Origin: Paludibacteraceae bacterium
GTDB taxonomy: Bacteria; Bacteroidota; Bacteroidia; Bacteroidales; Paludibacteraceae
Direction: 5' to 3'
NCBI GenBank assembly: GCA_016285885.1
Contig: JAEERP010000019.1
Location: 1-41,824 of the forward strand
DNA length: 41,824 bases
Shown here: in pieces, positions 1 through 41,749 of the stretch
Layout of the letters: the number at the start of each line of letters is the position of its first letter
Numbering within the stretch: the stretch's first letter is position 1
Notes under the pieces: generated by a model
The model's input: the letters and a program-made list of their open reading frames with translations, nothing else
Told to the model about the DNA's origin: nothing
The model's database searches: none
Program-made: the position numbers and the translations under genes

Positions 1-3000
1 GGTGAGAGGGAACACGTCATCTTCTGATATAGCGCATATGTCTAGTTCCTCGACGATCTCAAACAGCGTCATCTGTGACAATGTCGTCACCTCTTCCTCC
101 ACACCGATTTGGATGAGGTATGGTGCCTCCATGGTCAATTGTACCGTTGTCCGCAACGAGACGAGGCATGCGAATGTTGTCCATATCAATGGTTCCACGT
201 TGAAGAACTCTATTTTTGTCGGCAACAAGACGGTTGGCGGTTATGGCAGCATCTTTGATGACGCAGCGTCAAGCACGATCGTCAACAACATGTTGGAGAA
301 CACTTTCGTGAGGGGTAATATTGACGGAACAATGGCGCATGCCGCCTTCACGGATGCCGAGAACGGAGACTACTCGTTGACGGCGAACTCCTACTGTATC
401 AATGCCGGCGCAGATGTCGCCGACACGCTCGATTTCTTGGGGAAGGCGAGAAAACAGGGTGGTGCGGTGGATTTAGGTGCGATCGAGTCTGCCCATACAA
501 AAGCGCCAACCCTAAATTGCGGAGAGATTGTCTATGTGAAGTCAGGCTCCAATGGCGATGGCTCTAGCTGGTCGTCCGCTTTCGGGGATGTGCAGCAGGC
601 GATCTTTGCGGCGGCCGCGGACGGGAAGAGACACCAGATATGGGTGGCTGCCGGTACCTATTATGGCGACACGACGCACTCCACGGTGGTGAACCTTGCG
701 GCCGGAATCAGCTTGTATGGTGGATTCGCAGGCAACGAGACCTCCTTGGCGGCGCGTGACACGGCGAAGAACCCTACCATCCTGGACGGAAAGAATGTGA
801 GACGCTGTATCACCCAGAATTATGGATTCGTCGATTCCATGGCGGTTGTGGTGGACGGGTTCACCATCCGGAACGGCTATGCGCCAAACGGAGGAGGAGT
901 ATACCTCGCAGCCAACACGACGGTCAACAATTGTATCATCAAGGCGAATAAGGCATCCTCCAATGGTTCTGCCATCTATGCGGCAAATGCGACCATCAAA
1001 AACACCCAAATTGTGGGCAATGACTATCTGAGTGGTCTTCATTACACGGTCTATCTCTCTGGTTGTCGGTTGGACAGCTGTAATGTGAAGAACAACAGGT
1101 CGGATAACTATAGCGCGATTTATGCGAATGGCAACTCCGTTGTGACGAACTGTGAGGTTGAGGGCAATAGTTCCAATAGAGGCTATATAGGCTCTATCTT
1201 CTATTCGACGACCAAGGTCAGCAACTGTAAGTTCGTGAACACGAAGGGGAATGGTGCGTTTGTCTCTCTGCAGGAATCCTCCGTGATGCGGAATTGTTTG
1301 TTCCAGGGGAATACGGAAGGTAATGCGTCTGTCGTTGAAATTTCAGGCTACAACGTTTTGCTGGAAGATTGCCAAGTCATAGGCAATTCAACGAATTCAA
1401 GCTTGATGAGTGTGTATTACGGAAGAGTCAATAGATGTTTGATGAGGGGGAATACGACATCTTCTTATATTGTGTATATGTCTAGTTCTTCGGCGACCTC
1501 AAACTGCATCATCAGCGACAATGTCGTCACAACTTCCACCGAGCCGATTCGGTTGACATACGGTGCCTCCATGATCAACTGTACCGTTGTCCGCAACGAG
1601 ACGAAGTATGCGAATATCGTCTACCTCAATGGCTCCACGTTGAAGAACTCAATTATTGTTGGCAATAAGAGAAATACTAATTATAGTGATGTTTTGAGTC
1701 GTAATGGAACGAACACGATCGTCAACAACATGCTTGAGACCACCTCTTTGGAAGGAAATATTGATGGTGCGATGCAGTATGCCGCCTTCACGGATGCTGA
1801 AAACGGAGACTATTCATTGTCTGCGAACTCCTATTGTATCAATGCCGGTGCAGATGTCGCCGACACGCTCGATTTCTTAGGGAACCCAAGAAAACAGGGA
1901 GGTGCGGTGGATATGGGCGCGATTGAGTCTGCCCATATGAAAGCTTCAACGCCAAGTTGCGGGGAGATTGTGTATGTGAAGTTAGGATCCAATGGCGACG
2001 GCTCTAGTTGGTCGTCTGCCTTTGGCGATATCCAGCCAGCGATCGTCGCTGCGGCGTCGGATGGGAAGAGACACCAGATTTGGGTGGCTGCCGGTACCTA
2101 CTATGGCGACACGACGCTTCAAACGGTGATGAGCCTCTCGAAAGGAATCAGCCTATATGGAGGTTTTGCTGGAACAGAAACATCCCTTGCGGCGCGTGAC
2201 ACCGCCAAGAACCCTACTATTCTGGATGGTAGGAATGAGAGACGTGTTATCTCGCAATCCGAGGCGTTCGCCGATTCCATGGCGGTTGTGGTGGACGGTT
2301 TCACCATCCAAAATGGTTATGCGTCGAACGGAGGAGGTGCCTATTTGAGAAAGAATACGACCTTGAATAATTGCATCGTGAAGAATTGTCACGTCGTTGA
2401 TAACGGAACGGCAATATATGCTGTTGGCGCTAATGTCACAAATTCCATGATTTGTGGCAATGGTAATTCGAATTCGTATGATTATAACAAGTATGCTGCC
2501 TTGTACATGATAGGTGGTAAGGTTGATAACTGTATCGTGGCGGGCAATAAGGCATATTACACGGCTGCCATACATGCGACAGAATATGTCCGTATTACCA
2601 ATTCGCTTTTTGAAGCGAACTCGTCAAATAGAGGAGATCTGATTTATATGTCTCAATCCACAATGTCTGATTGTAGGATTATCAATCACACCATTTCATC
2701 GTACGCTGATTATGTGATCAGGATGGTTTCTGCTTCCAAGATGGAAAGATGTCTGATCGAAGGCAATACGGCGTTTGACCATATTGTGTACCTCTCCGAC
2801 AATTCCCTGCTCTCTAATTCCCAGATCACGAAATGCAAGTCTACCGATAGAAGTATGGTCTATTTCAGTGATGCTTCTAGGATGATTAACTGTACTGTGG
2901 CGGACAATGTCACGGGATATCAGACTATCTATTGTGAATCCTCACCTCAGATCCTGAATTCAATTGTCGTAGGCAACAAACGCACGAACAATTCTGAGAG

Positions 3001-4512
3001 TGTCTTGGTGAGAAACGCCACTATTCAATACTCAATGATCGAAGGTGGAGCCAATGGTGAAGGCAATATTGACGGTGGTAAGTCGAGTGCCGCGTTTGCG
3101 GATCCTGCTAATGGTGATTACTCTTTGTCTGGATCTTCCCTTTGTATCAATGCGGGAAGTGATGTCGCTGACTCGATTGATTTGAGGGGCAATGTGAGGA
3201 AACAGAGCACTGCCGTGGATATGGGTGCGATCGAGTCCGCATTCACGGAGAGAGTTTCGGTCGGCCCGATTATCTATGTGAAGTCTGGATCCGAAGGCTC
3301 TGGATTGAATTGGGACGATGCGCTTGGGGAAATCAACCAGGCGGTTACGCTTGCCTCTACTACGGGACAGAAACATCAGATCTGGGTGGCTAAGGGAACT
3401 TACCTCGGAGACACCTCTTTGGTTTCCGCCATCTCACTCGCCGCAGGTGTGAGCTTGTATGGAGGATTTGAGGGCAATGAGTCCTCCCTGGAGGAGCGGG
3501 ACGCCGCAAAGAACGTTACCGTGATAGACGGTAAATACAGACGTAGATGTATCATTCAAACCTATGACTTCGCTGATTCGTTGGCAATTGTGGTTGACGG
3601 ATTCACCATCCAAAACGGATTCCTGAGGGATAATGCCGGTGTGAATGCGAATGTGAAGGGCAACACTACTTTCAACAACTGTATCTTCAGAAGCGCGCGA
3701 GAGGGTAATGAGGGCGTATATGCCAATAAGACTGCCTTCAAGAACTGTACGTTCGTTGAGAACACAATCCAAGAACTCGAGCTCTATGGCGGAACGGTAG
3801 AGGGTTGTACCTTCACGGGTAATAAGACGAACCATTATGTTAGTTCTGTCGTTTATATCAGTGGTACCAAGATGTCTAACTCGCGGATCTCCGATTATGC
3901 GGAACACAATGCTATCCTTAAGGCAGAGGGAAATTCTGTGGTGTCATCTTGTAAGATCGTGAACAATGAAGCATGGTACGAAAATATAATTCATTTGTCT
4001 AACGCTACGCTCGAGAACTCTTTGGTGTACGGGAATGCTTTGCGCTACTCCAACCATTCTATCATAGCGGTTGACTACAACTCCTTCATCACCAATTCCA
4101 CTATCGCCCATAATACAACATTGAATAGAAGTGCGATCAGTTATGCGAACAGTTATTCTGGACGTTATGCTACAATCGCCAACTCTATCATCTTTGGCAA
4201 TAAGGTGACGGATGAGGTGCGTCCTCAAGTGGTTGCGTCAGAATATGTCAAGGTGAAGTACTGTGCTTCTGATGGGGAGTTGACTGGTGAGAACAACATT
4301 AGGTTGGCCACTTCAAACAGCGGTTCTGACGCATCCAAGAATTATGTATGCTTCATCAATGCGGCTGGCGGTGACTATCGTCTGCATGCTACCTCCGCTT
4401 GTATCGACAAGGGTCTTGATAGCTTGATGAAGGCTGAAACGGACCTCAACGGTGGGGCGAGAATCTACGGCAAGGCCATCGACCTCGGTGCGGTTGAGTT
4501 TGACGGTGAATA
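1..4512 (+). repeat. Tandem beta-helix units of the first giant gene (partial unit plus three)
   Basis: One partial unit is followed by units starting near 524, 1964 and 3266, each opening with a [IV]-[IV]-Y-V-K-x-G-[SA] motif. Spacings are 1,440 and 1,302 nt. The last unit ends near 4512 with DLGAVEFDG. Units share long near-identical DNA stretches, for example around [19 protein letters not shown] and [15 protein letters not shown]. The last two units are of a different, shorter subtype that closes the helix in all three giant genes. Confidence 0.85.
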
Positions 4513-7500
4513 TGTTCAGATGCGTGACTACAGCCAACCGGTTTGCTACAACAGGTACTCTTTGGAGGCTACATTCGATTCCACCATCGCTAAGATTGAT
4601 TGGCTGATCGTCAATGCGGGTTATGTGGAAGGCTTTGAAAACACTTCGGGTAGCGGTATCTCCATTCCGGCCATGCAGCTCCGCACCGCCAAGAACGATG
4701 TTGATACGATGACTGTGAAGGTTACGCCTTATGACAAAGCAGGTGTGGCTGGCACTCCATTCAACTACAACTACATCGTTTATCCGGACTTCTCCAAAAA
4801 GAAGGTGTCGTTCTCTTATCCTCCAGTGGCTTATATGGTGAATGAGCAGAACAATAACATGACTATCAGTTGGAACAGATTAATACTCCCTGTTGAAGTG
4901 GATAAGTATGATTTGTATGTATGGAAGGCTTCCCATAAGATGCCGGCTAATCCAATGGCTTCCTTCGTGAAGGATCACAGCAGACAATTGACAGGTCTGG
5001 ACAACCATACAACGTACAAGTATATGGTGAAGGCAGTCATCGCGTGTGACACTATATGCTCTGAGATCGATAGCTTCAGGATAGATATCCCTGTGAGCCT
5101 TACTGTGAGCGGGGATGTGAACTGCGTCTTCGGCTCGAAGTTGAACGAGACCTCTTCTCTTACCCGTTATGTGAGGGGATTCGAGTTGACGGATTCGATC
5201 ACGTATGAGATCACGGGTAGGGATGCCGCTGATTTCTCCGCAAGGTGTGAAAATGGTTGGGATAAGCTGAATGGTGGTTATCTGAGAATATTCTATACAC
5301 CAACGGATGTGAAGAAACAGACCAGCGATGCGGCGATCACGATTAGGTCGGGTAATTCTGGTAAGTATGAGGTCACATTCTATCTCGCTGGTACATTGTC
5401 TAACTATTATGTGTATGGTGCTGAGGTGGAGGAGCCTGTCTACTCTGCGGGTGACACGGTGAATGTGATCGGTATCCTGACCGATGCCTATGGTACTCCG
5501 ATGTGTGGCAAGTCGATCACGATAGAGGCGAACTCTAACACGGGATTCTCTCACTCCACATCCGAGGTGACAGATTCTACGGGTAGGGCATTGGCTCGAT
5601 TTGCGACGGAAAAGGTGGAGTGTGGTGTCTATACTGTGAAAGTATATATTGGATCGAAGGAGAGTAACGCGGCTTATGCGCGCTTCGATATTCCTGGTAT
5701 GGCATATTCGGGTGGTACTACGAAGTGGACCATCCAAAAGGGAGACACGATTGATGGCACGATCACTATTTCTAACCGAAGTGGCGTTGATCTTCATAAC
5801 CTTGTTGTCGAAACGCGTGAGTTGGCGGATGGCTTGGAGATTGCGTTCGACACGCTGAAACTCCTTAAGGGAAGCGAGTCGGCTAGAATTCCGTTCAAGG
5901 CTACTGGTACGAAACTGACCGAGGGCCGGTTGTATCTCCCAAGTGTCTTCAGGGTATCCTGCTCGGAGAAAACGACTTGTGACTTCACCACGTTCTTCTA
6001 TTGTGAACAACCTTATGGTCAGATTAAGGTCTCTCCTTCAAATATCAACGAGTATATCTCGAAACAGAAACCTAAGTACATCAATGTTGAGTTGACGAAT
6101 GCTGGATTCGGTGAGACGGGTGAGGTCTCGCTGGCTTTGCCGGATTTCGGTGGGTTCAGTGTTCCGACGACAACGTTGCCAAGCATTAAGTCTGGCGATA
6201 CGGCTAGAGTGATGTTGAGGCTCGCATACTTTGCAGGCGCTCCTATCAATGTGCCATTCACGGGCTCGATCGGTGTCAACTGCGCAAACGGCAAGTCTAC
6301 AAGTTTGCCATTCAGAGTTGAGTACTCTTCTGAGTCGAAAGGTGGCTTGGCGGTGGAAGTAGTGGATGAATACTACTACAATACCGCGAACAACAAACAC
6401 CTGAATGGTGCCAAGGTTGTGGTTCGCAACCAGTATAACAATCAGGAGGTGGCGTCTGGCTACTCAGACACTACCGGTATCGTGAAATTCGACAGCATTC
6501 CTGAAGGCACCTATCTGTTGAGCGTGAAGGCGGACAAGCATTCTGAGTACCAGGAGACAATCGAGATCCAAGCGGGTCAGATTGTGAACAAGTTTGTCTT
6601 CTTGGCTTATCAAGCCATTACCTATTCTTGGAATGTGGAGCGTGTTGAGATCGAAGACAGGTATGACATCAACCTCGACTTCGAGTACGAGACCAACGTT
6701 CCGGCTCCGGTTGTGACCTTGACGTTCCCTAACGGTGTCCCTGACAAGGCTAGATTCCAAGTGGGTGAACCGAAAGTGGTACAACTTCAGATCACCAACC
6801 ATGGTCTAATCGCGGCGCACTACGTGAAGTTCGGTATGCCGAAGGTGCCATATTATCGGTTCTATGTGCCTTACAACTATATCGATTCGTTGCCGGCCAA
6901 CCACACGGAGTTCGTGCCTATCACGATTGTCCGTACTGATGTGGAATTCCCTGAATATGGTTATAGTGAAAGCAGTGGCTCGGGTATCCCATTGGAGAAT
7001 GAGTCGCTCGGCACCTCTGAGTGCCCAAGCGTTCATGCGGAGTACTCTTATGTCTGTGGTTTGCTGAGACAATTGTCCGCCGTCAGCCCTAATCCATGGG
7101 GATGCCCATATTTGGTTCCTCTTGGCGGAGGTGGCGGCCACGGAGGTGGCGGATTTGACGTGCCTGCATATGGTGGCGGGGACCATAACGACGAGCATGA
7201 GCTCGGAAAGGTGGAGAACCATCATTATTCCGTCAATTTGGATATTCCATGTAATTCATGTTGGTCGAAAATTAATCCATGGGGATGTGTGGGTGATGTC
7301 CTTGGCTTTATCCCTATCATCGGACCTGCCCTTTCTTGGGGAACCGACAAGTTGCATGAGGCGCTTGAGGCGGATGCCGAAGAGAGACGTAAGGAACAAA
7401 GCGCTGAACTTAAGGATCACCCTGAATTGGAAAATGCCAGGGAATTTGCCCAAGAAACGGACTATTTCGAGTCCCTTGATATTCCATTCAGTGATTATAC

Positions 7501-10468: not shown

Positions 10469-10500
10469 GTTTTCGCGAACATTCATGATTAAGAGGACGA

Positions 10501-22700: not shown

Positions 22701-25700
22701 GAATCTGAGCAAGTTCGTGTTTGTCACGTATGAAGCTGTGACATACACATGGAAGGTGGAACGCACTGAGATTGAGGATAAATATGAGATTACGATCGAT
22801 ACAAAATTCGAGACCCATGTTCCTGCTCCTGTCTTGACGGCCGAGTTCCCGAATGGCTTGCCTGGCAAGGAGAAATTTAATCCTGGTGACAAGGAGATCG
22901 CTTATCTTATGATTACGAACCATGGATTAATCGCTGCGAAGAATGTGACGCTCCATTTCCCTGAGATGGCGAATTACATATTTGTTCCAGATGTGAGTCG
23001 TATTGATTCTTTCCCTGCGAACTATTCTATGGTCGTGCCTGTAACTATCCAAAGAGCTTATGCGGATGGAACATTTGATCCATCTTTCGGAGAAAGCGGC
23101 TCTGGCAGTGGTAGTGGTTCCGGCAGTGGTAGTGGCTCTGGCAGTGGCTCTGGATCCGGCAGTGGATCAGGTTCTGGATCCGGCAGTGGTAGTGGCTCTG
23201 GTTCTGGTGGTGGTTCCGGTAGTGGCTCTGGCGATAACCCTGGCGGTGAAAATCCTGGCAGTGGCTTCGGTAGTGGTTCTGGTAGTGGTAGTGGCAGTGG
23301 CTCCGGTAGTGGCTCAGGAAGCGGCTCCGGCAGTGGTAGTGGTTCCGGCAGTGGCTCTGGTTCTGGATCAGGCAGTGGCAGTGGATCAGGTTCCGGCAGT
23401 GGCAGTGGATCAGGTTCTGGCAGTGGCAGTGGATCTGGCTCAGGCTCTGGTAGTGGTTCTGGTAGTGGTTCCGGCAGTGGCTCTGGTTCAGGCTCAGGTG
23501 ATGATTGTGGAATAATTGTCATTTATTATAATTACGAGTGTGATGAATTGGTCGACAAGGAAGTCTATGTTGAGACCTGGAGGTGTGCTACAGCCACGCC
23601 ATCAAGCAGTGGCGGCTTGGCTGGTGTCGCTGGCGCAGGCAGTGGCGGATATGGTTACGGCGGCGGCTCTGGTGGCCAAAGTGGTAGCGTAAATATTAGT
23701 GGCCCAATTATTATTGAAAATAGAGAATGTGACAAAAAGTGTGATGGCCTTAATGCTAGGGCTGTTTTCAATTGCATGTTGAATCTTTGTGGATGGTTGC
23801 CATTCGACAAAATGAATAATTTGCCTGAAAATATTAGGAGAAATCTGAGGGCTTTGCCATCCTTGTTAGCTGGAGCAGGTCCGCTTGGATCAGCATGGGC
23901 GTATACGACAACTAATAACATGCATCGTGGGAAAGTGGCCGCTAGCTTATATGATGCAGGAACTCTAATTCTGAGTCTTATACCATATGTGAGGGTTATC
24001 CCATTTTCTTGTCTAGATATGTTGTGTCAGGCTATTTCGTGTGAGTACGATGGCGTGGATGTTAGCAATTGTGGCGAATATATCTACAATAAGTTCGCTT
24101 CGCCAAATACATTGAGGTCTGGTGGCCTTGATTTCTATCGGATCGCGGATCCTGAGTACTTGGCTTTGCATGACCTTTGGGAACTTATTAAGTTTGAGAG
24201 CCATAGATACGATTGTATTGTGGAGTATGTCGGAGCGGATGAGGCGATGATGAAAAAGGTCGGTTTGAATGACTTCCTTGAATTCGCCATGGATTCTTTT
24301 GCCGCTGTTGGTAAGATCGATATTGAGGCGGTTAAGAAGATTCCTGTGTCTGATCTTTCTTTGACTGAGATGATTGCGATTAGCGAGAGGTGGAACAGAA
24401 CTGTGGATGCTTGGAATGCTGGTGTCTACGCTCCGAATGAGGAATATCCGGATATCGCGAACAGAAGTGTTATCGAACAGCATCTTGATGCGGTCTCTAA
24501 CTACTACCAATATGTTATGTTCCGTGGATTTGAAAACATTGGCGATATGATTACGTCCTTCAATAATGGTTTGAAAGACCTTGACAAGCCAATTAAAAGT
24601 GTTTGTGCTAGCGTCAAACTCCAGATTTCCCAGACAATGACGATGACACGCGAGGCATTCGATGGCACGCTTATCGTTAACAATGGCAATGAGGCTATGG
24701 ATATGGACAACTTTAAGGTTGTGCTTGAGATCCGTGATGAGGAGGGCAATCTTGCGAATGATCTGTTCCAGATCAATACGCTCTCTTTGAAGGGCATCGA
24801 TGCTGTCGACGGAACCGCAAGTATTGGCGCCGGGAAAGAGGCAACCTCTGTGTTCCGCTTCATCCCGGAAAAGGGTGCTGCTCCGACGGCTCCTGTGAAC
24901 TACTCGTTTGGAGGTAAGATCCTCTATGTCGATGGGGGAGATACCATCACAATCGATCTCTATCCAGTGACATTGACGGTTAATCCTAGCCCGGATCTGC
25001 AGATCGATTACTTCATGCAACGTAATATCCTTGGCGATGATGCTCTGACGTTGGATCGTGTGGAGCCAAGCGTGCCGGCGGCTTTGGGTGTGCGAATCGA
25101 CAACCAAGGTTATGGTCTAGCTAAGAACGTGAAGTTGGAGACTGCCCAGCCTGAGATTGTGGACAATGCGAAAGGCTTGCTGATCGACTTCTCGATCATC
25201 GGTTCTAGCTTGGATGGCTTGGATTGTGATCTCGGCTCTAAGAACATTAATTTCGGCGACATTGAGGCGCAGACGGCTAAGACGGGTGTCTGGTGGATGA
25301 CCAGTTCATTGCTTGGACATTTCGTCAGCTATGAGGCGAATGTGGTTCATGCGAACAGTTTCGGTAATCCGGATCTGAGTTTGGTGAAGGGCGTCTCCAT
25401 CCATGAATTGATAAAGACGGTCGACGCCTATGGTGTGAAGGAGGATCATGCGCCAGACTTCCTCGTGAATGATGATGACGACTGGGATTATACGCCTGAT
25501 GCCATCTACTACTCTAATGGTGGCAAGGATACTGTCTATGAGGCGAAGAACGCTAAACTGGACAAGAACCGAGTCTCTCCTTATGATACGGTGGTCAAAC
25601 TTACCGTCACACCTGCTTCTGTGGGATGGAACTACGCTCAGACAAACGATCCGGGAGATAATCGCTACGAAATACGTAGGGTTGTGAGAGTGAAGGATAA

Positions 25701-26658
25701 CGTGGAGATCCCATTGGATAATGTCTGGACTACATTCGTCATGCTCCCTGATGGGTCGAGTCCGATCTACGAGAACCGCCTACATCTCTTGGATTACATG
25801 ACGACGCAAGGAGAGACGGATTACAACATCTATTATAGTTTGAAGAAGAATCTGTTGAAGGTGATAGATATTAGGGATGTGCCTTCTGCGATAGACGTTG
25901 TGACTACTCCTGTGAAGAGTGTGGTTGTTACGTTCAACCGTAAGATCCGTAAGGAGACGTTTGATTATAAAGACATTGAGTTCTACTGTCAGGCCAGCGA
26001 TAACTTGAGCGACCCTGCCATTACGGTTGAGCAACGTGACGACTATAACTATGTGGTGAATGTCTCTTCCAAGACGAATACTACGGGCTTCTTTAAGATC
26101 GAGGTTAATGTCACTGATGTGCTCGATCAAGATGGCTATCCTGGAGAAATGGGTAAGGGCGCTACTTGGACACAGTACTTGGAGGGCGTAGACCCTGGTA
26201 CGGGCGACGGTCCAGGCACAGGCGATGATCCGGGTACTGGTGATGACCCAGGTACGGGCGACGGTCCTGGTACGGGCGACGGTCCAGGCACAGGCGATGA
26301 TCCGGGTACTGGTGATGACCCAGGTACGGGCGACGGTCCTGGTACAGGTGACGACCCAGGTACAGGTGACGGCCCTGGCACTGGTGACGGCCCTGGCACT
26401 GGTGATGACCCTGGTACAGGTGACGGCCCAGGTGAGGAACCTACTCCTATTGTGGATGTTGAGGGTGGCAAGATGGTGGTTTACGCTTACCAGAATTGCA
26501 TCTATGTGAAGTCCACGAAGGCAGGTACGCTAGATATCTATGACGTGCTTTCTAAACTAGTGGTGAAGAATGCCCATTATGACGTGGGTGTCACACCAGT
26601 GGCCGTCTTACCTAAGGGCACTTATATCGTCAATGGCAAGAAGGTGATTGTGAAGTAA
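10792..26658 (+). CDS. Giant (5,288-residue) T9SS-secreted beta-helix surface protein
   Basis: The uninterrupted 15.9-kb frame starts at ATG 10792 (a second in-frame ATG lies at 10798). A signal peptide with basic N-region and hydrophobic core is probably cleaved after Ala30 (ASA|KG). Residues about 32-3280 are seven tandem beta-helix units. Next come beta-sandwich domains including FN3-like (about 3397-3475) and carboxypeptidase-regulatory-like (about 3890-3975), then a 135-residue Ser-Gly linker (4102-4236) found only in this paralogue. A Cys-rich, hydrophobic central cassette (about 4237-4437) leads to a conserved helical part and modules shared with the other two paralogues from about 4604. 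The protein ends with a Big_5-like domain, 13 hexapeptide repeats (about 5134-5214) and a T9SS sorting domain (about 5220-5288) closing [13 protein letters not shown]. Secretion route and surface location are inferred from these ends. Calculated size is above 500 kDa. Function is unproven, most likely adhesion or cell-cell contact. Confidence 0.92.
10885..20640 (+). repeat. Seven tandem beta-helix units, about 1.25-1.45 kb each
   Basis: Unit starts lie at about 10885, 12313, 13756, 15199, 16648, 18100 and 19393, giving spacings of 1428, 1443, 1443, 1449, 1452 and 1293 nt. The first five are long units. The sixth and seventh match the closing pair of the first giant gene. Each unit runs from the Y-V-K-x-G motif through [22 protein letters not shown] and DGFTI.NG, then about a dozen N-C-containing helix rungs, and ends at CINAG...[13 protein letters not shown] identity between units is high enough for homologous recombination, so copy number may be unstable or misassembled. 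Confidence 0.9.
23095..23499 (+). repeat. Ser-Gly dipeptide linker (135 residues)
   Basis: An in-frame array of Ser/Gly codons is broken once by a Pro/Asn/Glu-containing stretch near 23230-23268. It separates the beta-sandwich stack from the central cassette and is absent from both paralogues. At DNA level it is a 6-nt-period microsatellite with mixed Gly and Ser codons, so length can change without frameshift when whole units are lost or gained. Confidence 0.95.
26191..26433 (+). repeat. Hexapeptide (D/G)PGTGD linker minisatellite
   Basis: Thirteen complete 18-nt units alternate DPGTGD and GPGTGD, with a 72-nt higher-order repeat (compare 26197 and 26269). The linker joins the Big_5-like domain to the sorting domain. 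The equivalent linkers in the first and third giant genes hold only two or three units of a similar type. Confidence 0.93.
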
Positions 26659-26689
26659 GAGAAGTTCACTTATTTTGATAAAAGAGAGC

Positions 26690-26727
26690 AAAACCACTTC
26701 CCGAGAGTCTTGGGGAGTGGTTTTGTG
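26690..26727 (+). terminator. Rho-independent terminator after the 5,288-residue gene
   Basis: A 13-bp stem with one G-U pair (26690-26702 with 26712-26724) and a 9-nt loop is followed by T-rich DNA. It starts 32 nt after the stop codon. Confidence 0.85.
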
Positions 26728-26969
26728 TATTTGTTGTGGTATTTTATGATGGTGGCTTTTTAGGACAAATCTTATGCAAGTTTCTTTATGATATGATATT
26801 TAATTTGCTATTAATCAATTATTAAGTTTATTTATGTCATTTTTATTCGAGAGTGTTTTTACAATTTTTATATAATTTTTTCATTTTTTAAATCTACACT
26901 TGTATTTTTGTGTATTTTATGGCATAGTTTTTGTTGCTAAAAAGGTGGAGATAATTTTTATTTAATACC
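26728..26969. other. AT-rich non-coding gap before the third giant gene
   Basis: No ORF with coding character is seen. The gap holds only the candidate promoter listed separately. Confidence 0.5.
26900..26933 (+). promoter_or_regulatory. Candidate Bacteroidota promoter for the third giant gene
   Basis: TTG at 26900-26902 is followed after 22 nt by TAGTTTTTG (26925-26933), which is the TAnnTTTG -7 element with one extra base. A start near 26940 would give a leader of about 30 nt before the ATG. The match is imperfect in an AT-rich region. Confidence 0.35.
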
Positions 26970-29900
26970 ATGAGTTCTGTTATTATCAAGTCGAAATCGC
27001 TTTTGATGATTTTGGCACTATTTTTTGTCACGTTCCCGTCATTGGCTAAAAGTGTAATTTATGTGAAATCAGGAGCTAATGGGGACGGTAGTTCTTGGAG
27101 TAATGCATTCGGAAATGTTCAGCAGGCTGTGGATTTGGCTGCGAAAACAGGTGCTGACGTTTGGGTTGCCAAAGGTGTATACAAAGGCGATTCGACCGCG
27201 GTGGTTTCCTTGAAACCGAATGTTAGTCTGTATGGTGGTTTTGCTGGAACGGAGACTTCACTTTCCGTTAGGGACACGGCAAAGAATCCTACTGTGTTGG
27301 ATGGTGATAATGCAATCCGCGTAATCAGTCAGGTGGATGATTTTGCTGACACGTCTGCGGTTGTGGTGGATGGCTTCACGATCCAAAATGGTATGGCGAG
27401 TAACGGTGGTGGCGCGTTCCTGAAAAAGAATGCCACGATAAGCAATTGTATTTTAAAGAATAATGGTGCGACATTGAAATCCGTCGGATTGGCGATCTAT
27501 GCGAAAAATGCTAAGATTAAGAATTGTATAATTTGCAACAATAGCTCAAATGAAGTTCCTTGGACAGTCTATTTGCTACAATCAGAAATGGACAGCTGTG
27601 TTGTGAAGGACAATGCGGTAATATCGGGCTCGGCATTGTATGGAGAGCTTTCCACAATTTCTAATTCTGTCATAGACTCGAATAAGAATATCGACTGGTA
27701 TGTTAATCCTCCGGTGTTTTTGAATAATTCTAAGTTGGTTAAATGTGTTGTGAAGAACAACTATGGACAAAATGCTGGTGTGCGTGCTTGTAATAACAGT
27801 GAGATCACGGGTTGTACGTTTTCAAATAACATAAGTACGCAGAATAGTGTCATCCATATTGAAACGAGTTCAAAGATTGAGGATTCCGAAATCTTCGACA
27901 ATGAAGGCCTTTACTACGAGGTGATTTATTTGATCGGTTCCTCGTCGATGAATCGTTGTAAGGTGTTCAATAATGTGGTGGATAGGAATCATTGTATTGT
28001 TAATATCCGCAACAACTCTACTCTTTCCAATTCGTTGATCTATGGAAATGAGGGTCGGGAGAATGCCTATGCACCTCTTGTGTTGGTCTATTCCTCGATG
28101 GTAAATACAACCTTTGCGGATAATGAGACGTCGGCAATATATGCGGCTGATATCACAGGTTCAACTGTGACGAACTCTATTATTGTCGGTACGAAGTTCA
28201 CTGGGAGATTCCTGAGCCATCTTGATCTGAAAGAAACAAACAACATCACGTATTCGATGATTGAAGGTGGCGCGGATGGAGAAGGCAACATCGACGGAAA
28301 CAGATGGGGCGCCGCTTTTGTGAACCCTTCCAATGGTGATTACTCATTGTCCAAAACCTCTCTTTGTCTTAATGCGGGTACTGATGTCGCTGATACGGTT
28401 GATTTGAGGGGCAACGTGAGAAAACAGATGTCAGCGGTGGATATGGGTGCGATCGAGTCTTCGTTCTCGGGAAGGGCTTCTACCGGTCCTGTCGTTTATG
28501 TGAAGGCTGGCGCCGAGGGCTCCGGATCGAGTTGGGAAGACGCTTTGGGCGATATCAGTCAGGCGATAACACTTGCCTCTGCAATGAGGAAGAAACCTCA
28601 GATATGGGTGGCTAAGGGTTCTTACTATGGAGATACGACGAGGCCATATGCCATCACACTCTCTGCTGGTGTGAGCCTCTATGGCGGATTCGCCGGCACG
28701 GAATCCTCTTTGGGGGAGAGAGACGTGGTGCGCAATGTCACCATAATCGACGGTGATTCTAAGAGGAGGTGTGTCGTCCAGAACTATGTTTTCGCTGATT
28801 CGTTGGCAATCGTGGTGGACGGATTCACCATTCGGAACGGAGCTGGGAAGAATGGCGCTGGTGTCGCCGCAAATACAAAGAAGAACACTACTTTCCGCAA
28901 CTGCATCTTCTCTGATGTGGTGGAGGGCGATCAGAGCGTCTATGCGGAAAAGACTCACTTCAAGAACTGTAAGTTCGTTGACATCGCAAACCGAATCCTT
29001 GAAATCAAAGGTGGGGTGGTGGATAGTTGTGCGATCCTGAATAACAGGAATACCCGATACTCCAGCTCTATCTATCTCGAAGCGTCGGTCTTCTCTAATT
29101 CTTTGGTGTCTGGCTGCTCGGCTATCTTAGGTGTTTTTGAGGCTATGAATAATTCTGTTGTTTCGGCATGTAGGTTCGAAAACAATGAGACTGCTGAAAG
29201 GAACGTGATCCTTTTGAATAGTTCTACGCTGGAGAACTCTTTGGTGTTCGGAAATAAAACGCGAGATGGACAGGCACCCATCGTTTCGGTTAATCACGCC
29301 TCCTTCATCACTAACGCTACCGTTGCCCACAACATCACTGTGCGTGGCAATGCGGTAGGTCATGGCAGTTCGGCGCAGGGTGTATATACTATGATTTCCA
29401 ACTCCATCATCTATGGCAACAAGGCGACGCACGCTGTTGTCCCTCAGGTTGATTCGTCGGATCACTTGAAGGTGTCGTATTGCGCCTCTGATGGCGAATT
29501 GACTGGCGAGAACAACATCAGGTTGGCTCTCGCCAATAGCGGATCTGATGCCTCTAAGAAGTACGTGTGCTTTATCGACGCTGCTGGTGGTGATTATCGC
29601 CTGCATGCGACATCCGCTTGTATCGACATGGGTATTGACAGCGTGATGACGGCTAAGCGTGACATCAATGGTGGCGCAAGAATCTATGGCAAGGCTATCG
29701 ATATGGGTGCCATTGAGTTCGATGGTGAATATGTGCGGATGTTAGAATACAGTCAAGTGGTTTGCTACGACAAAACTACGCTGGAGGCTACTTTCGATTC
29801 TACCATCTCTAAGATTGATTGGGAGATCGTTGATGCAAGCGATGTCACAGGATTCGAACATACTTCCGGTAGCGGTTCCGTGATCCCTGCTATGCGTCTT

Positions 29901-32900
29901 CGCACTGCGAGTGATAATGTCGATACGCTGACACTGAAGGTCACTCCTTACAATGTGGCAGGTGAGGAAGGTGTGCCGTTCGATTACAAATATCTTGTAT
30001 ACCCAGATCTTTCCGAGTTGAAGATCTTGTTCCTTCGCCCTCAAACGCCTTACGAGGTGAATGCGAAGAGCGCAGACATGGCGGTGGAGTGGAAGAAATT
30101 GCCGCTCGCTGCTGAGGCGAACCAATATGATTTCTATTTGTGGAAGGCCTCTCAAGAGATGCCGTCTGCTCCGAAGGCTTCTTTCACGAACAGATACCGT
30201 ATAGACTTGTTGGAACTGGATAACCACACGACGTACAAATACATGGTACGGGCGGTGTTCGCTTGTGATACCGTATATTCCGAGGTGGATAGCTTCAGGA
30301 TAGATATTCCTGCGAATCTGGAGATATACGATTCTCCGATTTGTGAGTTGGGCACTAAGTTGAACGATACCACCTATTCCCGCAGGTATATCAAGGGATT
30401 TGAATTGAAGGATACAATCACCTATACGCTCTCAGGCGAGGAGGTGGCGGACTTCTCTGTCCAACTCGCTGATGCATGGAACGCATTGACGGGTGGTTCC
30501 TTCGATATCTATTATACTCCTACTGATGCGAATAAACCATTAAGCAATGCCACATTGACGTTCCAATCGGGCAGTTTTACTGCGGTGATGGATCTGAAGG
30601 GTATTCTCGCGAACTACTATGTCTTCGACGCTGTTGTGGAGAATGATGTGTACAAGGCGGGCGATACCATCATGATCAAGAGCTCTGTGGTGGATGCCAT
30701 GGGGAAACCTTATGAGAACAAACAACTGAAAGTTACCTTGAGGAAGGATGGTTCCCCAATCATGATAAAAGAGGTGACGTCGGATGCTCATGGAGAGGCC
30801 ATCGTGAAGTATGTCTCTTCTGCTTTTGAATGTGGCGTCTATTCAGTGGGCGTCTGTCTGAGCACGGAAAATACAAATGTGACCCATGATGAGTTTAACA
30901 TCCCGGGTATCTCATGCGTTGTGGGCGCTGACAGATGGTTGGTTCAGAAGGGTGACACGATCCGTGGAACGATTCTCGTGAAGAACCATAGCAATGTTGA
31001 GTCTCGCAACGTGAAGGTGAAGACTATCAGTTTGGCCAGTGGCTGCAAGGTGGTCTTCGATTCAATTGATGTGTTACGAGGCCTTGAGGAGAAGAGCATC
31101 AGCTACTATCTGACGGGCGAGTCTATCACCGAGGGCTCTTCTTATTTGCCATCGACCTTCCGTGTGTTGACGGGAGAGGGCTTGAGTACAGATTTCTCCA
31201 CTTACTTCTATTGTGAGATGCCTTATGGACAGATCAAAGTGTTGCCTGCCAATATTACGGAGTATGTCTCCAAACAAAATCCTAAGTATGTTGAGCTTAT
31301 GCTTTGCAACACAGGCTTAGGAGAGACTGGTGGAGTGTCTGTGGCTCTGCCGTCTGGTTTTGAAGGCATGACGATGCCTGGTGGTACGGAGATCAACAGC
31401 ATTAAGCCTGGCGACACGGTAAGAACCGTCTTGAAATTGGCTTATTATGAGGGCGCTAAGCTTAATATGCCAATCTATGGTACGATAGGGGTCAACTGCG
31501 AGAATGGCAAGTCCACATCCATCACCTACTCGGTAGAATACACTTCTTCAGTGGTGGGAAGCGTCAGTGTTGATGTGGTCGATGAGTATTACTATAACAC
31601 TGCGGACAAACCGCATCTTGCTGGTGCGACCGTTGAGATTAGGAATGCGTTTAGCAATGAGGCGATCGCCTCTGGCGTTACCGATAGCACCGGCAAGGTC
31701 CACTTCGACAATATTCCGGAGGGAGATTATTTGTTGGTTGTCAATGCGGATAAGCATGCTGGGCACAGAGAGACGATCACCGTTCAGGCTGGTCAAAATT
31801 TGAACAAGTTCGTGTTTGTCTCCTATCAGGCTGTGACATACACCTGGAATGTGGTGCCTACGGAGATAGAGGATAAGTATGAATATAGCCTGGAGATGGA
31901 GTATGAGACGAATGTTCCTGTCCCGGTTGTGACGGCTGAATTTATTTCCGAAATACCTGACAAGTCGACCTTTAACGTCGGTGAGAAGTATGTCGCCAAT
32001 CTTTTGATTACAAATCATGGATTGATCGCGGCGAAGAATGTGCGGATTAATGCCCAGCACGTGGAGAGCTTCCGTATAAAGCCTGCTATCGATCATTTCG
32101 ATTCTCTCCCGGGAAACTTTTCTGTGCTTGTGCCAGTGTCTATCGAGCGTGTTAAGCTAAATGGTGATGATAACAATTCTGGTGACGAGGGATGTTCTGG
32201 GTTAGCGTTTCTGTATGAATATGTTTGCGATACTATCAAGGCGATTCATGGATATGTTCCTATTTGGAGATGCCCTTCGTTTGATATCAATTTGTCAGGA
32301 GGTGACGCCTCTGGACATGTCGATGGCGCAATAGCATATTTTGGTGCCTCTTCCTCCACGGGTGACCCTTGCCCTCCAGACACGTGTGAAGGAGAAGTTA
32401 ATGCATTAATAGATTGTATTTTGGATATAATTGGCTGGATTCCACTCTTTGGAGATGCGGCGGAAGATTCGTATGTGGGTGCTAAGCGAGTCGGTGATAT
32501 TATTTCTGCGTTTCAGGCCTCATATTCGGCTGCGTCTGCAGTTGGTGATGCTATTGACGGAAAAAATTCCGAGAGGGATAAATATCGTAATTTGTATAAT
32601 GCTAGTGCTATTGGTATGGGCTTTATCCCTATTATTGGGGATTTCATTCCGTTTGGATGTTATGATTTGTTGTGCCAACTATTTTCATGTCTCATGAATG
32701 GCGTGTTTGCGGAGAATTGTGGTGAATATTTATACGATTTGGAACATAAAAACACGTTGAGATCCGCTGACGTGAATGATTTCTATAAAACTGCGCCGCC
32801 ACATTTGTTGGCATATCACGATTTGCTCGAGTTTTATAAGTTTGAGGCCTATAGGTTTAGATTCGTTGCGGAATGTGTTGGAGCTGATGATGAAATGATG

Positions 32901-35108
32901 AAAAAAACTGGCTTGGTGGATTATTTGGATTTCGCCATTGATTCTTTTGCGTTACGACGGAAGATAGACATTGATAGAGTCAAGGAACTTCCTGTAACTG
33001 ACCTCTCTCTGACTGAAATGATTGCGATTAGTGAGAGATGGAATCGGTCTATGGATGCTTGGGATGATAGCGTGTTTAGCTCGAATGAAAAGTATCCTGA
33101 CATTGCGGACAAGAATGTTCTTATCGATTATCTTAAGGGAATGGAGAACTTCTATTATTATGTGGCATTCCGAGGATTTTTGTCTACTCAGCAGTTGAAG
33201 GATTTCATCATCGACCAAGTTGATAAGCAGGACAAGAAACGGAAGGGCGTTTGCGCAAGCGTTAAGCTTCATATCTCTCAGACAATGACGATGACTCGCG
33301 AGGCATTTGACGGTACGCTTACTGTTAACAATGGCAACGAGACTAGGGATATGGATAACTTTAAGATCGTGCTTGAGATTCGTGACGAGAAGGGCAACCT
33401 TGCGAATGATTTGTTCCAAATCAACACGCAGTCTTTGAAGGGCATTGATGCTGTTGATGGTTCTTCGACGATTGGTGCCGGGGAGGAGATTACCGCATCG
33501 TTCCGTTTCATACCTGAAAAGGGTGCCGCTCCGAAGACTCCTGTGAGATATTCGTTTGGCGGAAAGATCATCTATGTGGAGTCTGGCGATACATTCACGC
33601 TCAAGTTGAATCCGGTAATGTTGACTGTCAATCCAAGCCCAGACTTGCAGATCGATTACTTCATGCAACGTAATATCCTTGGCGACGATGCCTTGACGAA
33701 GGATCGTGTCGAACCAAGTGTGCCGGCGGCTTTGGGTGTGCGAATCGACAACCAAGGCTATGGGGCCGCTAAGAATGTGAAGCTCGAGACGGCTCAGCCT
33801 GAGATCGTCGACAACGAGAAGGGCTTGCTGATAGAGTTCGATATTATCGGTTCTAGCTTGGACGGTAAGGATTGTAATCTTGGATCGGAGAACATCAACT
33901 TTGGTGACATCAATTCCCGAACGGCTAAGACGGGTGTTTGGTGGATGACCAGCTCATTGCTTGGACACTTCACTAAGTATGAGGCGAGTGTGGCTCACAC
34001 GAACAGCTATGGCAACGCTGATTTGAGCCTGGTGAAGGGCATAGCCGTTCATGAGTTGATCAAGACGGTCGACGCTTACGGTCTGAAGGCGGATCATGTC
34101 GTTGACTTCCTCGTGAACGACCAAGTGGATGGCGATGACATCCCTGATGCGATCTACTACTCTGATGGAGGCGTGGATTCTGTGAGTGAGGCGCACTCTA
34201 CAAGGCTAGATAAGGATAGGGTTTCCTCTTCCGATACGGTGGTGAGACTCTCCGTCATTCCTTCCCAAAGCGGTTGGAACTATGCACAGACGTATGATCC
34301 GGGAGATAATTGCTACGAAATACAGAGGGTGGTGAGACTGAAGGATGGCGTGGAGATTCCTTTGGATAATGTCTGGACAACGTTCGTCACGCTTCCTGAT
34401 GCCGAGGAGCCAATCTACGAGAACCGCCTGCATTTCTTGGATTACATGACCGCATTGGAGGAGACTGACTATGATATTTACTTCAGCCCGAGAAAGAACC
34501 TCTTGGAGGTGACTTCCATTACGGGAACGCCTTTGACTGTTAATGCTGTCAGGGAACCGATAGATAGTGTGATCGTCCATTTCAACCGCAAGATCCAGAA
34601 GGAGTCGTTCGACTATAAGGATATCGAGTTGTACTGCCAGGCCGGCGATAACCTGAGTGATTCGACCTTCACGGTTAAACAGTTAGATGACTATACCTAT
34701 GTGGTGAATATCTCTTCCAAGACGAATGCTTTTGGGTTCTACAGGCTGGAGGTTAACGTCAACAATGTCTATGATGAGGATGGATACCCTGGAGAGTTCG
34801 GTAGGAGCGCTACTTGGGTTCAATACGTGGATGGTGAGGAGCCTGGCGCAGGCGATGACCCTGGCACAGGTGACGACCCAGGTGAGGAACCTACTCCTAT
34901 TGTGGATGTTGAGGATGGCAAGGTGTTTGTTTACGCTTACCAGAATTGCATCTATGTGAAGTCCGCACGGGCGGGTACGCTTGATATCTATGACATACTT
35001 TCCAAATTGGTGGTGAAGAATGCCCATTATGACGTGGGTGTCACACCTGTGGCCGTGCTGCCTAAGGGCGCTTATATTGTCAATGGCAAGAAGGTGATTG
35101 TGAAGTAA
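26970..35108 (+). CDS. Giant (2,712-residue) T9SS-secreted beta-helix surface protein, short paralogue
   Basis: ATG 26970 opens a signal peptide that is probably cleaved after Ala26 (SLA|KS). Only two beta-helix units follow (about residues 28-920), corresponding to the closing pair of the larger paralogues. The same beta-sandwich stack comes next: FN3-like about 1035-1114 and carboxypeptidase-regulatory-like about 1531-1614. The central cassette (about 1731-1931) has Cys pairs and two hydrophobic stretches, including GMGFIPIIGDFIPFG. A conserved helical part, the shared C-terminal modules from about 2094, a Big_5-like domain (about 2531-2614), a two-to-three-unit Pro-Gly linker and the T9SS sorting domain (about 2645-2712) complete it. 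Its own promoter candidate and terminator suggest independent transcription. It looks like the minimal member of the family, useful for defining which parts are obligatory. Function is unknown; a surface location is inferred. Confidence 0.92.
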   Translation: MSSVIIKSKSLLMILALFFVTFPSLAKSVIYVKSGANGDGSSWSNAFGNVQQAVDLAAKTGADVWVAKGVYKGDSTAVVSLKPNVSLYGGFAGTETSLSVRDTAKNPTVLDGDNAIRVISQVDDFADTSAVVVDGFTIQNGMASNGGGAFLKKNATISNCILKNNGATLKSVGLAIYAKNAKIKNCIICNNSSNEVPWTVYLLQSEMDSCVVKDNAVISGSALYGELSTISNSVIDSNKNIDWYVNPPVFLNNSKLVKCVVKNNYGQNAGVRACNNSEITGCTFSNNISTQNSVIHIETSSKIEDSEIFDNEGLYYEVIYLIGSSSMNRCKVFNNVVDRNHCIVNIRNNSTLSNSLIYGNEGRENAYAPLVLVYSSMVNTTFADNETSAIYAADITGSTVTNSIIVGTKFTGRFLSHLDLKETNNITYSMIEGGADGEGNIDGNRWGAAFVNPSNGDYSLSKTSLCLNAGTDVADTVDLRGNVRKQMSAVDMGAIESSFSGRASTGPVVYVKAGAEGSGSSWEDALGDISQAITLASAMRKKPQIWVAKGSYYGDTTRPYAITLSAGVSLYGGFAGTESSLGERDVVRNVTIIDGDSKRRCVVQNYVFADSLAIVVDGFTIRNGAGKNGAGVAANTKKNTTFRNCIFSDVVEGDQSVYAEKTHFKNCKFVDIANRILEIKGGVVDSCAILNNRNTRYSSSIYLEASVFSNSLVSGCSAILGVFEAMNNSVVSACRFENNETAERNVILLNSSTLENSLVFGNKTRDGQAPIVSVNHASFITNATVAHNITVRGNAVGHGSSAQGVYTMISNSIIYGNKATHAVVPQVDSSDHLKVSYCASDGELTGENNIRLALANSGSDASKKYVCFIDAAGGDYRLHATSACIDMGIDSVMTAKRDINGGARIYGKAIDMGAIEFDGEYVRMLEYSQVVCYDKTTLEATFDSTISKIDWEIVDASDVTGFEHTSGSGSVIPAMRLRTASDNVDTLTLKVTPYNVAGEEGVPFDYKYLVYPDLSELKILFLRPQTPYEVNAKSADMAVEWKKLPLAAEANQYDFYLWKASQEMPSAPKASFTNRYRIDLLELDNHTTYKYMVRAVFACDTVYSEVDSFRIDIPANLEIYDSPICELGTKLNDTTYSRRYIKGFELKDTITYTLSGEEVADFSVQLADAWNALTGGSFDIYYTPTDANKPLSNATLTFQSGSFTAVMDLKGILANYYVFDAVVENDVYKAGDTIMIKSSVVDAMGKPYENKQLKVTLRKDGSPIMIKEVTSDAHGEAIVKYVSSAFECGVYSVGVCLSTENTNVTHDEFNIPGISCVVGADRWLVQKGDTIRGTILVKNHSNVESRNVKVKTISLASGCKVVFDSIDVLRGLEEKSISYYLTGESITEGSSYLPSTFRVLTGEGLSTDFSTYFYCEMPYGQIKVLPANITEYVSKQNPKYVELMLCNTGLGETGGVSVALPSGFEGMTMPGGTEINSIKPGDTVRTVLKLAYYEGAKLNMPIYGTIGVNCENGKSTSITYSVEYTSSVVGSVSVDVVDEYYYNTADKPHLAGATVEIRNAFSNEAIASGVTDSTGKVHFDNIPEGDYLLVVNADKHAGHRETITVQAGQNLNKFVFVSYQAVTYTWNVVPTEIEDKYEYSLEMEYETNVPVPVVTAEFISEIPDKSTFNVGEKYVANLLITNHGLIAAKNVRINAQHVESFRIKPAIDHFDSLPGNFSVLVPVSIERVKLNGDDNNSGDEGCSGLAFLYEYVCDTIKAIHGYVPIWRCPSFDINLSGGDASGHVDGAIAYFGASSSTGDPCPPDTCEGEVNALIDCILDIIGWIPLFGDAAEDSYVGAKRVGDIISAFQASYSAASAVGDAIDGKNSERDKYRNLYNASAIGMGFIPIIGDFIPFGCYDLLCQLFSCLMNGVFAENCGEYLYDLEHKNTLRSADVNDFYKTAPPHLLAYHDLLEFYKFEAYRFRFVAECVGADDEMMKKTGLVDYLDFAIDSFALRRKIDIDRVKELPVTDLSLTEMIAISERWNRSMDAWDDSVFSSNEKYPDIADKNVLIDYLKGMENFYYYVAFRGFLSTQQLKDFIIDQVDKQDKKRKGVCASVKLHISQTMTMTREAFDGTLTVNNGNETRDMDNFKIVLEIRDEKGNLANDLFQINTQSLKGIDAVDGSSTIGAGEEITASFRFIPEKGAAPKTPVRYSFGGKIIYVESGDTFTLKLNPVMLTVNPSPDLQIDYFMQRNILGDDALTKDRVEPSVPAALGVRIDNQGYGAAKNVKLETAQPEIVDNEKGLLIEFDIIGSSLDGKDCNLGSENINFGDINSRTAKTGVWWMTSSLLGHFTKYEASVAHTNSYGNADLSLVKGIAVHELIKTVDAYGLKADHVVDFLVNDQVDGDDIPDAIYYSDGGVDSVSEAHSTRLDKDRVSSSDTVVRLSVIPSQSGWNYAQTYDPGDNCYEIQRVVRLKDGVEIPLDNVWTTFVTLPDAEEPIYENRLHFLDYMTALEETDYDIYFSPRKNLLEVTSITGTPLTVNAVREPIDSVIVHFNRKIQKESFDYKDIELYCQAGDNLSDSTFTVKQLDDYTYVVNISSKTNAFGFYRLEVNVNNVYDEDGYPGEFGRSATWVQYVDGEEPGAGDDPGTGDDPGEEPTPIVDVEDGKVFVYAYQNCIYVKSARAGTLDIYDILSKLVVKNAHYDVGVTPVAVLPKGAYIVNGKKVIVK
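27049..29731 (+). repeat. Two beta-helix units of the third giant gene
   Basis: Unit openings (Y-V-K-x-G-A) lie near 27049 and 28492. The first unit combines the standard N-terminal opening with the [15 protein letters not shown] feature of the penultimate units in the paralogues. The second matches their final unit and ends in GAIEFDG near 29731. Confidence 0.8.
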
Positions 35109-41689: not shown

Positions 41690-41738
<49 letters not shown>

Positions 41739-41749
41739 GCCCCCCACCC

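What the first reader, a model, noticed from the sequence alone, without database searches (positions are those of the whole stretch)
1..35108. Three-member family of giant T9SS surface proteins with modular length variation
All three share the same order of modules but differ in beta-helix units (at least 4, 7, 2), in linkers and in the central cassette. The two closing helix units and everything from the beta-sandwich stack to the sorting domain are conserved. This suggests a fixed base with an extendable tip, in which reach from the cell surface is tuned by unit number.
Basis: partly seen in the sequence, partly recalled or inferred. Interest (0 to 1): 0.7.

Follow-up and report, generated by a model that had tools for sequence, protein, structure and literature searches.

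The report
Giant surface proteins with swappable units
A bacterium related to gut bacteria of plant-eating animals carries three giant probable surface-protein genes built from strings of large helical units, and the DNA suggests that whole units have been gained by recombination at the start of a unit and that a middle section has been swapped between relatives.

Summary
Three related giant ORFs are real, in a genome with type IX secretion genes. Corrections: the window starts at a contig end inside gene 1; its likely start lies at another contig end, so unit numbers are at least 5, 7 and 2. Units fall into head, variable (V), penultimate (P) and closing types. Gene 3 is head plus closing, so only the closing unit is common to all three. 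Twelve genes with countable arrays, here and in relatives, have 2-7 units. Three of ten unit triplets tested, one in gene 2, show the mosaic that unequal crossover near the start of a unit (N-cap) would leave. In 9 of 9 genes the P cap is on average closer to the gene's own V caps than to other genes' P caps. The 'fixed base' is only partly fixed: a central block of about 1000 residues exists in two types and looks exchanged. The last 520 residues before the linker and tail recur in other Bacteroidales with other tips, in Nostoc and, in part, in proteobacteria. Not shown: adhesion, reach, variation within a species. It resembles Periscope Proteins but lacks their high repeat identity and separate head domain.

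The parts
2..10468 (+). gene 1, 3488 aa in the window, 5' end cut by the contig start (its likely start is C41:85468-87516, not in the window)
2..496 (+). gene 1: C-terminal part of a V-type unit
524..1936 (+). gene 1: V-type beta-helix unit
1964..3244 (+). gene 1: penultimate (P) unit
3269..4504 (+). gene 1: closing (C) unit
4505..6922 (+). gene 1: beta-sandwich stack, transthyretin-like domain and following Ig-like region
6923..8608 (+). gene 1: central cassette (glycine-rich linker, Cys-rich and helical region)
8609..10180 (+). gene 1: conserved C-base
10310..10444 (+). gene 1: T9SS type-A-like tail, 20.9 bits (cut-off 23)
10792..26658 (+). gene 2, 5288 aa, 7 units
10888..12285 (+). gene 2 unit 1 (V-like)
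12313..13725 (+). gene 2 unit 2 (V)
13756..15168 (+). gene 2 unit 3 (V)
15199..16617 (+). gene 2 unit 4 (V)
16648..18069 (+). gene 2 unit 5 (V); within its first 420 nt, sites up to about nt 369 (window ~17016) mostly follow unit 6, later ones unit 4: probable crossover scar
   Evidence: 52 of 67 informative sites fit one break; 7 of 10,000 shuffles as good
18100..19371 (+). gene 2 unit 6 (P)
19396..20631 (+). gene 2 unit 7 (C)
20632..23043 (+). gene 2 beta-sandwich stack (PKD/fn3/MG2-like), transthyretin-like domain and following Ig-like region
23044..24603 (+). gene 2 central cassette with a (Gly-Ser)n linker coded by imperfect repeats (23104-23493)
24604..26169 (+). gene 2 conserved C-base
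26191..26433 (+). gene 2 [12 protein letters not shown] linker, 18-nt repeats
26500..26634 (+). gene 2: T9SS type-A-like tail, 20.1 bits (cut-off 23)
26970..35108 (+). gene 3, 2712 aa, 2 units
27054..28466 (+). gene 3 head (H) unit
28491..29723 (+). gene 3 closing (C) unit
29724..32138 (+). gene 3: beta-sandwich stack, transthyretin-like domain and following Ig-like region
32139..33251 (+). gene 3 central cassette
33252..34817 (+). gene 3 conserved C-base
34950..35084 (+). gene 3: T9SS type-A-like tail, 18.3 bits (cut-off 23)
35337..36944 (+). 535-aa protein without a family match over cut-off; related DNA follows the giant gene in relative G015; possible accessory

Best explanation
These are probably T9SS-exported giant surface proteins, anchored by the C-terminus, that carry an N-terminal string of separately capped right-handed beta-helix units. 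Each unit has a conserved N-cap (about 140 residues) and a less conserved solenoid body. Misaligned homologous recombination between the caps of neighbouring units, above all at the V-P boundary, adds or removes whole V units and leaves the penultimate unit with a cap like the gene's own V units. Closing and penultimate units keep their place and type, the head unit mostly so. The central block with its Cys-rich cassette is exchanged as a separate module. Function is probably binding of glycans or other surfaces in the herbivore gut, with number and kind of units setting valency, specificity and length together. Shown here: anatomy, unit types, number variation between genes and species, cap mosaics, signs of block exchange, T9SS genes. 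Inferred: export of these particular proteins, anchoring, adhesion, and ongoing variation in populations.
For: Unit clades by position for C (SH-aLRT 100), P (99) and H (100), and V units that mostly group by gene (FastTree). 2-7 units in 12 countable arrays. Cap mosaics: G034 unit 4 (60 of 63 informative sites fit one break at nt 144-174), G011 unit 4 (65 of 68, break at nt 115-132), own gene 2 unit 5 (52 of 67), reached by 0, 0 and 7 of 10,000 shuffles (3 of 10 triplets tested). G034 units 3 and 4 are 97.5% identical with a 507-nt exact run, and units 4 and 5 share their first 152 nt. P caps: mean synonymous divergence to own V caps is below that to P caps of other genes in 9 of 9 genes, while P bodies go the other way in 8 of 9; in V-P pairs caps are synonymously closer than bodies in 22 of 25. 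Block exchange: G034 and L035, which share the same downstream gene, have 80-89% DNA identity in 6 of 7 windows from the P unit to the fn3 region, 47-65% in the next 7 windows (about 1000 residues), then 73-80%; against L025 the first four windows of the block are 77-81%. The two-unit model shows two separate capped solenoids. T9SS genes.
Against: In V-V pairs of one gene, caps are synonymously closer than bodies in only 15 of 30, with equal means (0.55 and 0.55), so caps are not homogenised among V units in general. Seven of ten triplets gave no clear mosaic (one at 207 of 10,000, six at 3,766 or more); the test ignores autocorrelation of sites and looked at one orientation. The three tails score under the family cut-off, and at E up to 1 the tail model also rings in 13 of 14 control genomes, over its cut-off in 1. 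Adjacent V units are 67-88% identical in DNA in all but one pair. Five of five countable clade-I arrays have 6 units. The family was not found in 9 of 15 same-genus genomes. The assemblies are fragmented MAGs as far as titled, so arrays could be collapsed. Model confidence is middling (67.9) or poor (47.4 for the C-terminal part). No binding partner is known.
Confidence: 0.55

Rival explanations
1. Plain length-tuning: the array is a passive spacer on a fixed base, and unit number only sets how far a tip reaches.
For: Unit number varies 2-7; a head-type unit comes first in many arrays; fold predicted as elongated solenoids.
Against: Gene 2, G005_A, G010_A and G015 lack the head unit in first place and L024 carries it second, so there is often nothing special to project; the base is not fixed. 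Amino-acid-changing divergence is higher in bodies than caps in 20 of 30 V-V pairs, but synonymous divergence is not (15 of 30), so this is weak evidence only.
Confidence: 0.2
2. Units are polysaccharide-active enzymes (lyase or epimerase like) strung together to act on plant or host glycans.
For: Best Foldseek hits are PL6 alginate lyases, AlgE epimerases, GH55, GH87 and phage tailspikes.
Against: In 67 units no charged residue or His of the body is conserved at 95% or more, and only one Asp reaches 85%. V-type units alone do keep one Lys, one Glu and one Arg at 95% or more (24 units). The fold hits have low TM-scores and may reflect the common fold.
Confidence: 0.1
3. Old paralogy plus drift: tandem gene copies diverged, unit gains and losses are rare and neutral, and nothing is being tuned or shuffled.
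For: Low identity between V units in gene 2 (68-78%); 6 units in all five countable clade-I genes; no cap-body difference in V-V pairs.
Against: 97.5% identity of G034 units 3 and 4 with a clean mosaic; V units mostly group by gene, not by position; six of ten interrupted genes of the close family are broken inside a V unit, as near-identical or mixed repeats would cause.
Confidence: 0.25

Closest known systems
Periscope Proteins (SasG, Rib, Sgo_0707, CdrA; passages of PMC8201768 and PMC9704523 seen)
   Same: Surface proteins with tandem folded domains, repeat number differing between genes, and recombination between repeats as the proposed cause.
   Different: Repeats here are about 410-475-residue capped beta-helices, 67-88% identical in DNA in all but one adjacent V pair; mosaics lie in the caps; no separate N-terminal binding domain; T9SS genes; number variation seen between species and paralogues only.
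choice-of-anchor Q / right-handed beta-helix proteins (NF041518, PF13229)
   Same: Gene 1 matches both models over cut-off (4 and 6 stretches) and gene 3 matches choice_anch_Q (2 stretches).
   Different: Here such domains are strung 2-7 times in one chain, in four positional types. Gene 3 has no PF13229 match at E up to 1.
T9SS type A cargo proteins (TIGR04183 / PF18962)
   Same: C-terminal sorting-domain-like tail; relatives G277, G296 and G052 that share the C-base match PF18962 over its cut-off.
   Different: The tails of the window proteins fall below the TIGR04183 cut-off.
RHS-containing giant proteins of Methylomonas and Eleftheria plasmids (L079, L078)
   Same: A region like the one before the cassette and the first 375 of 522 residues of the C-base are both found there.
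   Different: Between them lie RHS repeats and further ORFs instead of the Cys-rich cassette, and the two parts are in separate ORFs.

Membership tests
Periscope Proteins | tandem repeats of individually folded domains forming a rod | tested here: inconclusive
   two separate capped solenoids in one model, mean pLDDT 67.9; rod not tested
Periscope Proteins | highly identical repeats at DNA level | tested here: not met
   G034 units 3/4 reach 97.5%; the other adjacent V pairs are 67-88%
Periscope Proteins | repeat number varies between closely related strains | not testable with these tools
   one genome per species held; variation seen between species and paralogues
Periscope Proteins | distinct functional domain at the distal end | tested here: not met
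   units begin directly after the signal-peptide-like start; a head-type unit exists in some arrays but is itself a unit
T9SS type A cargo | tail matching TIGR04183 above cut-off | tested here: not met
   20.9, 20.1 and 18.3 bits against 23; E 0.001-0.007; 78 other places in the genome pass
T9SS type A cargo | T9SS machinery in the genome | tested here: met
   SprA, PorU, GldM; other components not searched
T9SS type A cargo | signal peptide | tested here: inconclusive
   seen by eye at the start of genes 2 and 3 and of the C41 fragment; no predictor run
choice-of-anchor Q domain proteins (NF041518) | model match above cut-off | tested here: met
   95.3 and 50.3 bits against 25 for genes 1 and 3; gene 2 was not scanned with this library

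The most novel reading that the evidence does not exclude
A recombination-built, combinatorial surface array: the caps act as shared seams through which beta-helix bodies are duplicated, lost and shuffled, while a separate central slot, occupied by RHS repeats in two proteobacterial relatives, is swapped as a payload cassette next to a C-base shared across phyla. The protein would be a general chassis with two independent variable bays, not a telescoping stalk.
Probability: 0.25. Interest if true: 0.75.

Novelty: new variant of a known kind. Interest (0 to 1): 0.55.

Why it matters
If true, uncultured gut Bacteroidales remodel their largest surface proteins by a route that can be read from sequence: seams in caps, changing bodies, fixed closing end. 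That makes population-level surface variation testable by long reads. It also points to a conserved C-base module, found here in Bacteroidales, Nostoc and (in part) two proteobacterial genera, for which the Pfam scans made here gave no match over cut-off apart from a Big_5-like end in one relative.

Tried and rejected
PDB sequence searches with the two-unit and C-terminal profiles gave no credible relative. The second structure job, on the C-terminal 1090 residues, was too poor to use as a whole. No Rfam match in the window at the gathering scores. No phage record of that collection matched the C-base of gene 2. The C41 fragment as a fourth gene: less likely after the comparison with G007 but not excluded. 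The DNA upstream of it does not match the DNA upstream of the relatives' genes, and the 190-aa gene that lies upstream in G007, G005 and G015 is elsewhere in this genome. Homogenised caps as a general rule: one search gave lower synonymous divergence for caps than bodies in 36 of 48 within-gene pairs (p 1e-4, pairs not independent) against 15 of 45 in a cross-gene control of P units, but one search showed that this comes from V-P pairs (22 of 25) and not from V-V pairs (15 of 30); the claim was cut back and the confidence lowered from 0.60 to 0.55 (novel case from 0.30 to 0.25; the drift rival raised from 0.20 to 0.25). A distal rise of divergence between gene 1 and its G007 counterpart (dS 0.08 in the base, 0.11 in P and C units, 0.19 and 0.25 in units 4 and 1, 0.64 in the unit-2 part) is not general: G010_A and G015 show the opposite. 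Break positions: of ten genes of the close family interrupted by contig ends, six break in a V unit (own gene 1, G449, G451, G452, G453, G454), two in the closing unit (G010_B, G011; G011 has a further break in the C-base), one in the cassette (G005_B), one in a unit of unassigned type (G013); suggestive only. Paper searches (lists capped) showed none that joins T9SS with Periscope-type repeat variation; none of the 9 listed papers holds both terms. The library has open-licence papers only. Listings only were seen, except passages of PMC9704523, PMC8201768 and PMC9210967.

Full report
What is there. The window is contig C31 of a 3.75-Mb, 46-contig genome. By the record titles of its relatives (MAGs called Paludibacteraceae or Bacteroidales, several from rumen, yak, sheep or horse samples, one Candidatus Scybalocola fimicaballi) the source probably belongs near the Paludibacteraceae. 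Three + strand ORFs of 3488 (5' open), 5288 and 2712 aa share one architecture: beta-helix units, PKD/fn3 and MG2/Big-like sandwiches, a transthyretin-like domain, a cassette, a conserved 522-aa C-base, a linker and a T9SS-like tail.

The start of gene 1. C41 ends at base 87516 inside an ORF that begins at 85468 with a signal-peptide-like start, one full unit and 176 aa of the next. Relative G007 has one complete 6-unit gene. The C41 fragment matches its units 1 (91.9%) and 2 (85.6%); the head of the window matches the ends of its units 2 and 3 (94.9 and 94.7%), and the window then matches units 4, 5 and 6 at 93.3, 96.6 and 96.4%. Gene 1 thus most likely has 5 or 6 units. G007's units 2-3 find matches in this genome on C31 and C41 only. 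The join of the two contigs remains inferred.

Unit types. A profile from 13 seed units and a tree of 67 full units (the distant G013 left out, one search had 68) give four types: closing, about 411 aa (SH-aLRT 100); penultimate, about 425 aa except one of 373 (99); head (100, with L024's second unit); variable (98). V units mostly group by gene: G005_A units 2-4 (99), G010/G015 units 1-4 (99), G034 units 2-4 (93), G007 units 2-4 with gene 1's V unit (100), gene 2 units 2-5 (89). First units of gene 2, G005_A and L024 form a group of their own among the V units (99). Gene 3 and its G010 counterpart are head plus closing.

Unit number. Countable arrays: own gene 2, 7; own gene 3, 2; G007, G034, G005_A, G010_A, G015 and G011, 6 each; G005_B and G450, 5 each; L024, 4; G010_B, 2 (in G011 and G010_B the closing unit is itself cut by a contig end). 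Split over two contig ends, if the halves belong together: own gene 1 at least 5, G449 clade I at least 5, G453 at least 7, G451, G452 and G454 at least 4 each. Among 15 same-genus genomes the C-base was found in 6, so the genes are not universal.

Mechanism of unit gain. If caps of neighbouring units cross over unequally, the new unit must begin like the unit after it and continue like the unit before it. In G034, unit 4 follows unit 5 for the first 144 nt and unit 3 mostly from nt 174 (60 of 63 informative sites in the first 420 nt); in G011, unit 4 switches at nt 115-132 (65 of 68); in the window, gene 2 unit 5 switches near nt 369-378 (52 of 67). Shuffles as good: 0, 0 and 7 of 10,000. Of the other seven triplets tested, one gave 207 and six gave 3,766 or more. 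G034 units 3/4 share a 507-nt exact run and units 4/5 their first 152 nt.

A second test. Crossover at the V-P boundary should give the P unit a cap like the gene's own V units while its body stays P-like. In 9 of 9 genes the P cap has a lower mean synonymous divergence to own V caps than to P caps of other genes (lowest single value: 6 of 9), and P bodies go the other way in 8 of 9, L024 being the exception. By DNA identity, P bodies are closer on average to other P bodies than to own internal units in 10 of 10 genes (five further P units had no internal unit to compare, and two pairs of genes are near-identical). Against a wider claim: among V units of one gene, caps and bodies do not differ in synonymous divergence (caps lower in 15 of 30), so the 36 of 48 rests on V-P pairs.

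The base is not fixed. Trees of the part after the helix split the family into clade I (gene 1 type) and clade II (genes 2 and 3 type) with support 1.0 (FastTree). Sliding identity shows that the split lies in a central block. G034 and L035 sit beside the same downstream gene and are 80-89% identical from the P unit to the fn3 region except one window of 67%, then 47-65% over about 1000 residues, then 73-80% in the C-base and tail; G034 and L025 are 77-81% in the first four windows of that block and 56-71% over the cassette. G010_A and G015 are 95-100% identical except in the cassette (70-92%) and near the tail (92 and 83%).

Where the base comes from. In 393 genomes of the order, 11 (the own one included) hold the C-base, in 10 of 207 genera. 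In the stretches fetched from the 10 others no helix unit was found, though some of these genes are cut or masked. Pfam was run on three of them: they carry cohesin and CARDB (G277), CARDB (G296), or laminin-G and ASPM/HYDIN-like Ig repeats with CARDB (G326). G277, G296 and G052 (same family) match PF18962 over its cut-off. Among 72,556 plasmid records four carry the C-base: Nostoc (38.6% over all 522 residues), Eleftheria and two of Methylomonas (about 375 residues each). In Nostoc both halves are in one ORF with only about 160 residues between them. In Eleftheria and in the one Methylomonas record examined, the part before the cassette and the C-base are in separate ORFs with RHS repeats and other ORFs between. 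The central position may therefore be a general payload slot; this is inference from two loci.

Structure. The two-unit model of gene 3 (15 sequences) gives two solenoids, each with its own capping helix, mean pLDDT 67.9, relative orientation not reliable. Foldseek's best hits are PL6 lyases and other polysaccharide-active beta-helices, with low TM-scores. No charged or His residue of the body is conserved at 95% across 67 units; V units alone keep a Lys, a Glu and an Arg at 95% or more.

Export. SprA, PorU and GldM are present over their cut-offs. The genome has 124 tail matches at E up to 1, of which 78 pass the cut-off; the three window tails do not, and at this E-value the model also rings in 13 of 14 control genomes (over cut-off in 1).

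Verdict. The extendable part is real and a sequence-level route for it is visible in three genes. The base is itself modular, and nothing here measures reach. I place it as a new variant of the length-variable surface protein idea, not as a Periscope Protein.

Noticed in passing
C41:85413-85428 (40 nt before gene 1's likely start) and window 26918-26933 (before gene 3): An element TTTGRCAYRCTTTTTG lies exactly upstream of gene 1's likely start and of giant genes in G007, G010, G034 and L024, and with one change before gene 3; it resembles a sigma-54 -24/-12 site (recalled, not tested; the second G is A in G007, G010 and G015). TTTGGCAYRCTTTTTG with up to 1 mismatch occurs 9 times in the genome against 0 for the reversed control; in the window alone looser matches are not above chance.
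   Followed up: partly
window 37721-41646: Two - strand genes in a stretch of lower G+C (0.37-0.38): one with a CoiA N-terminal domain and one GmrSD_N protein that matches PADLOC's candidate defence model HEC-05 at 689 bits.
   Followed up: partly
window 41691-41749: A run of about 59 bases, nearly all C, near the end of the contig, followed by odd C-rich sequence; perhaps an artefact.
   Followed up: no
L009 2-8284: Upstream on contig C41, an ORF of at least 2760 aa (5' open) that looks like HYR-type repeats with a gliding-type C-terminus; by eye only.
   Followed up: no
L078 4438-17340: On the Eleftheria plasmid an RHS-repeat ORF, an ankyrin ORF and genes annotated as GspG, type II secretion F and GspE/PulE stand next to the C-base ORF: perhaps an RHS system with its own secretion genes.
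   Followed up: no
window 35337-36944: A 535-aa protein with a signal-peptide-like start and no family match over cut-off follows gene 3; related DNA (81-83%) follows the giant gene of G015.
   Followed up: partly
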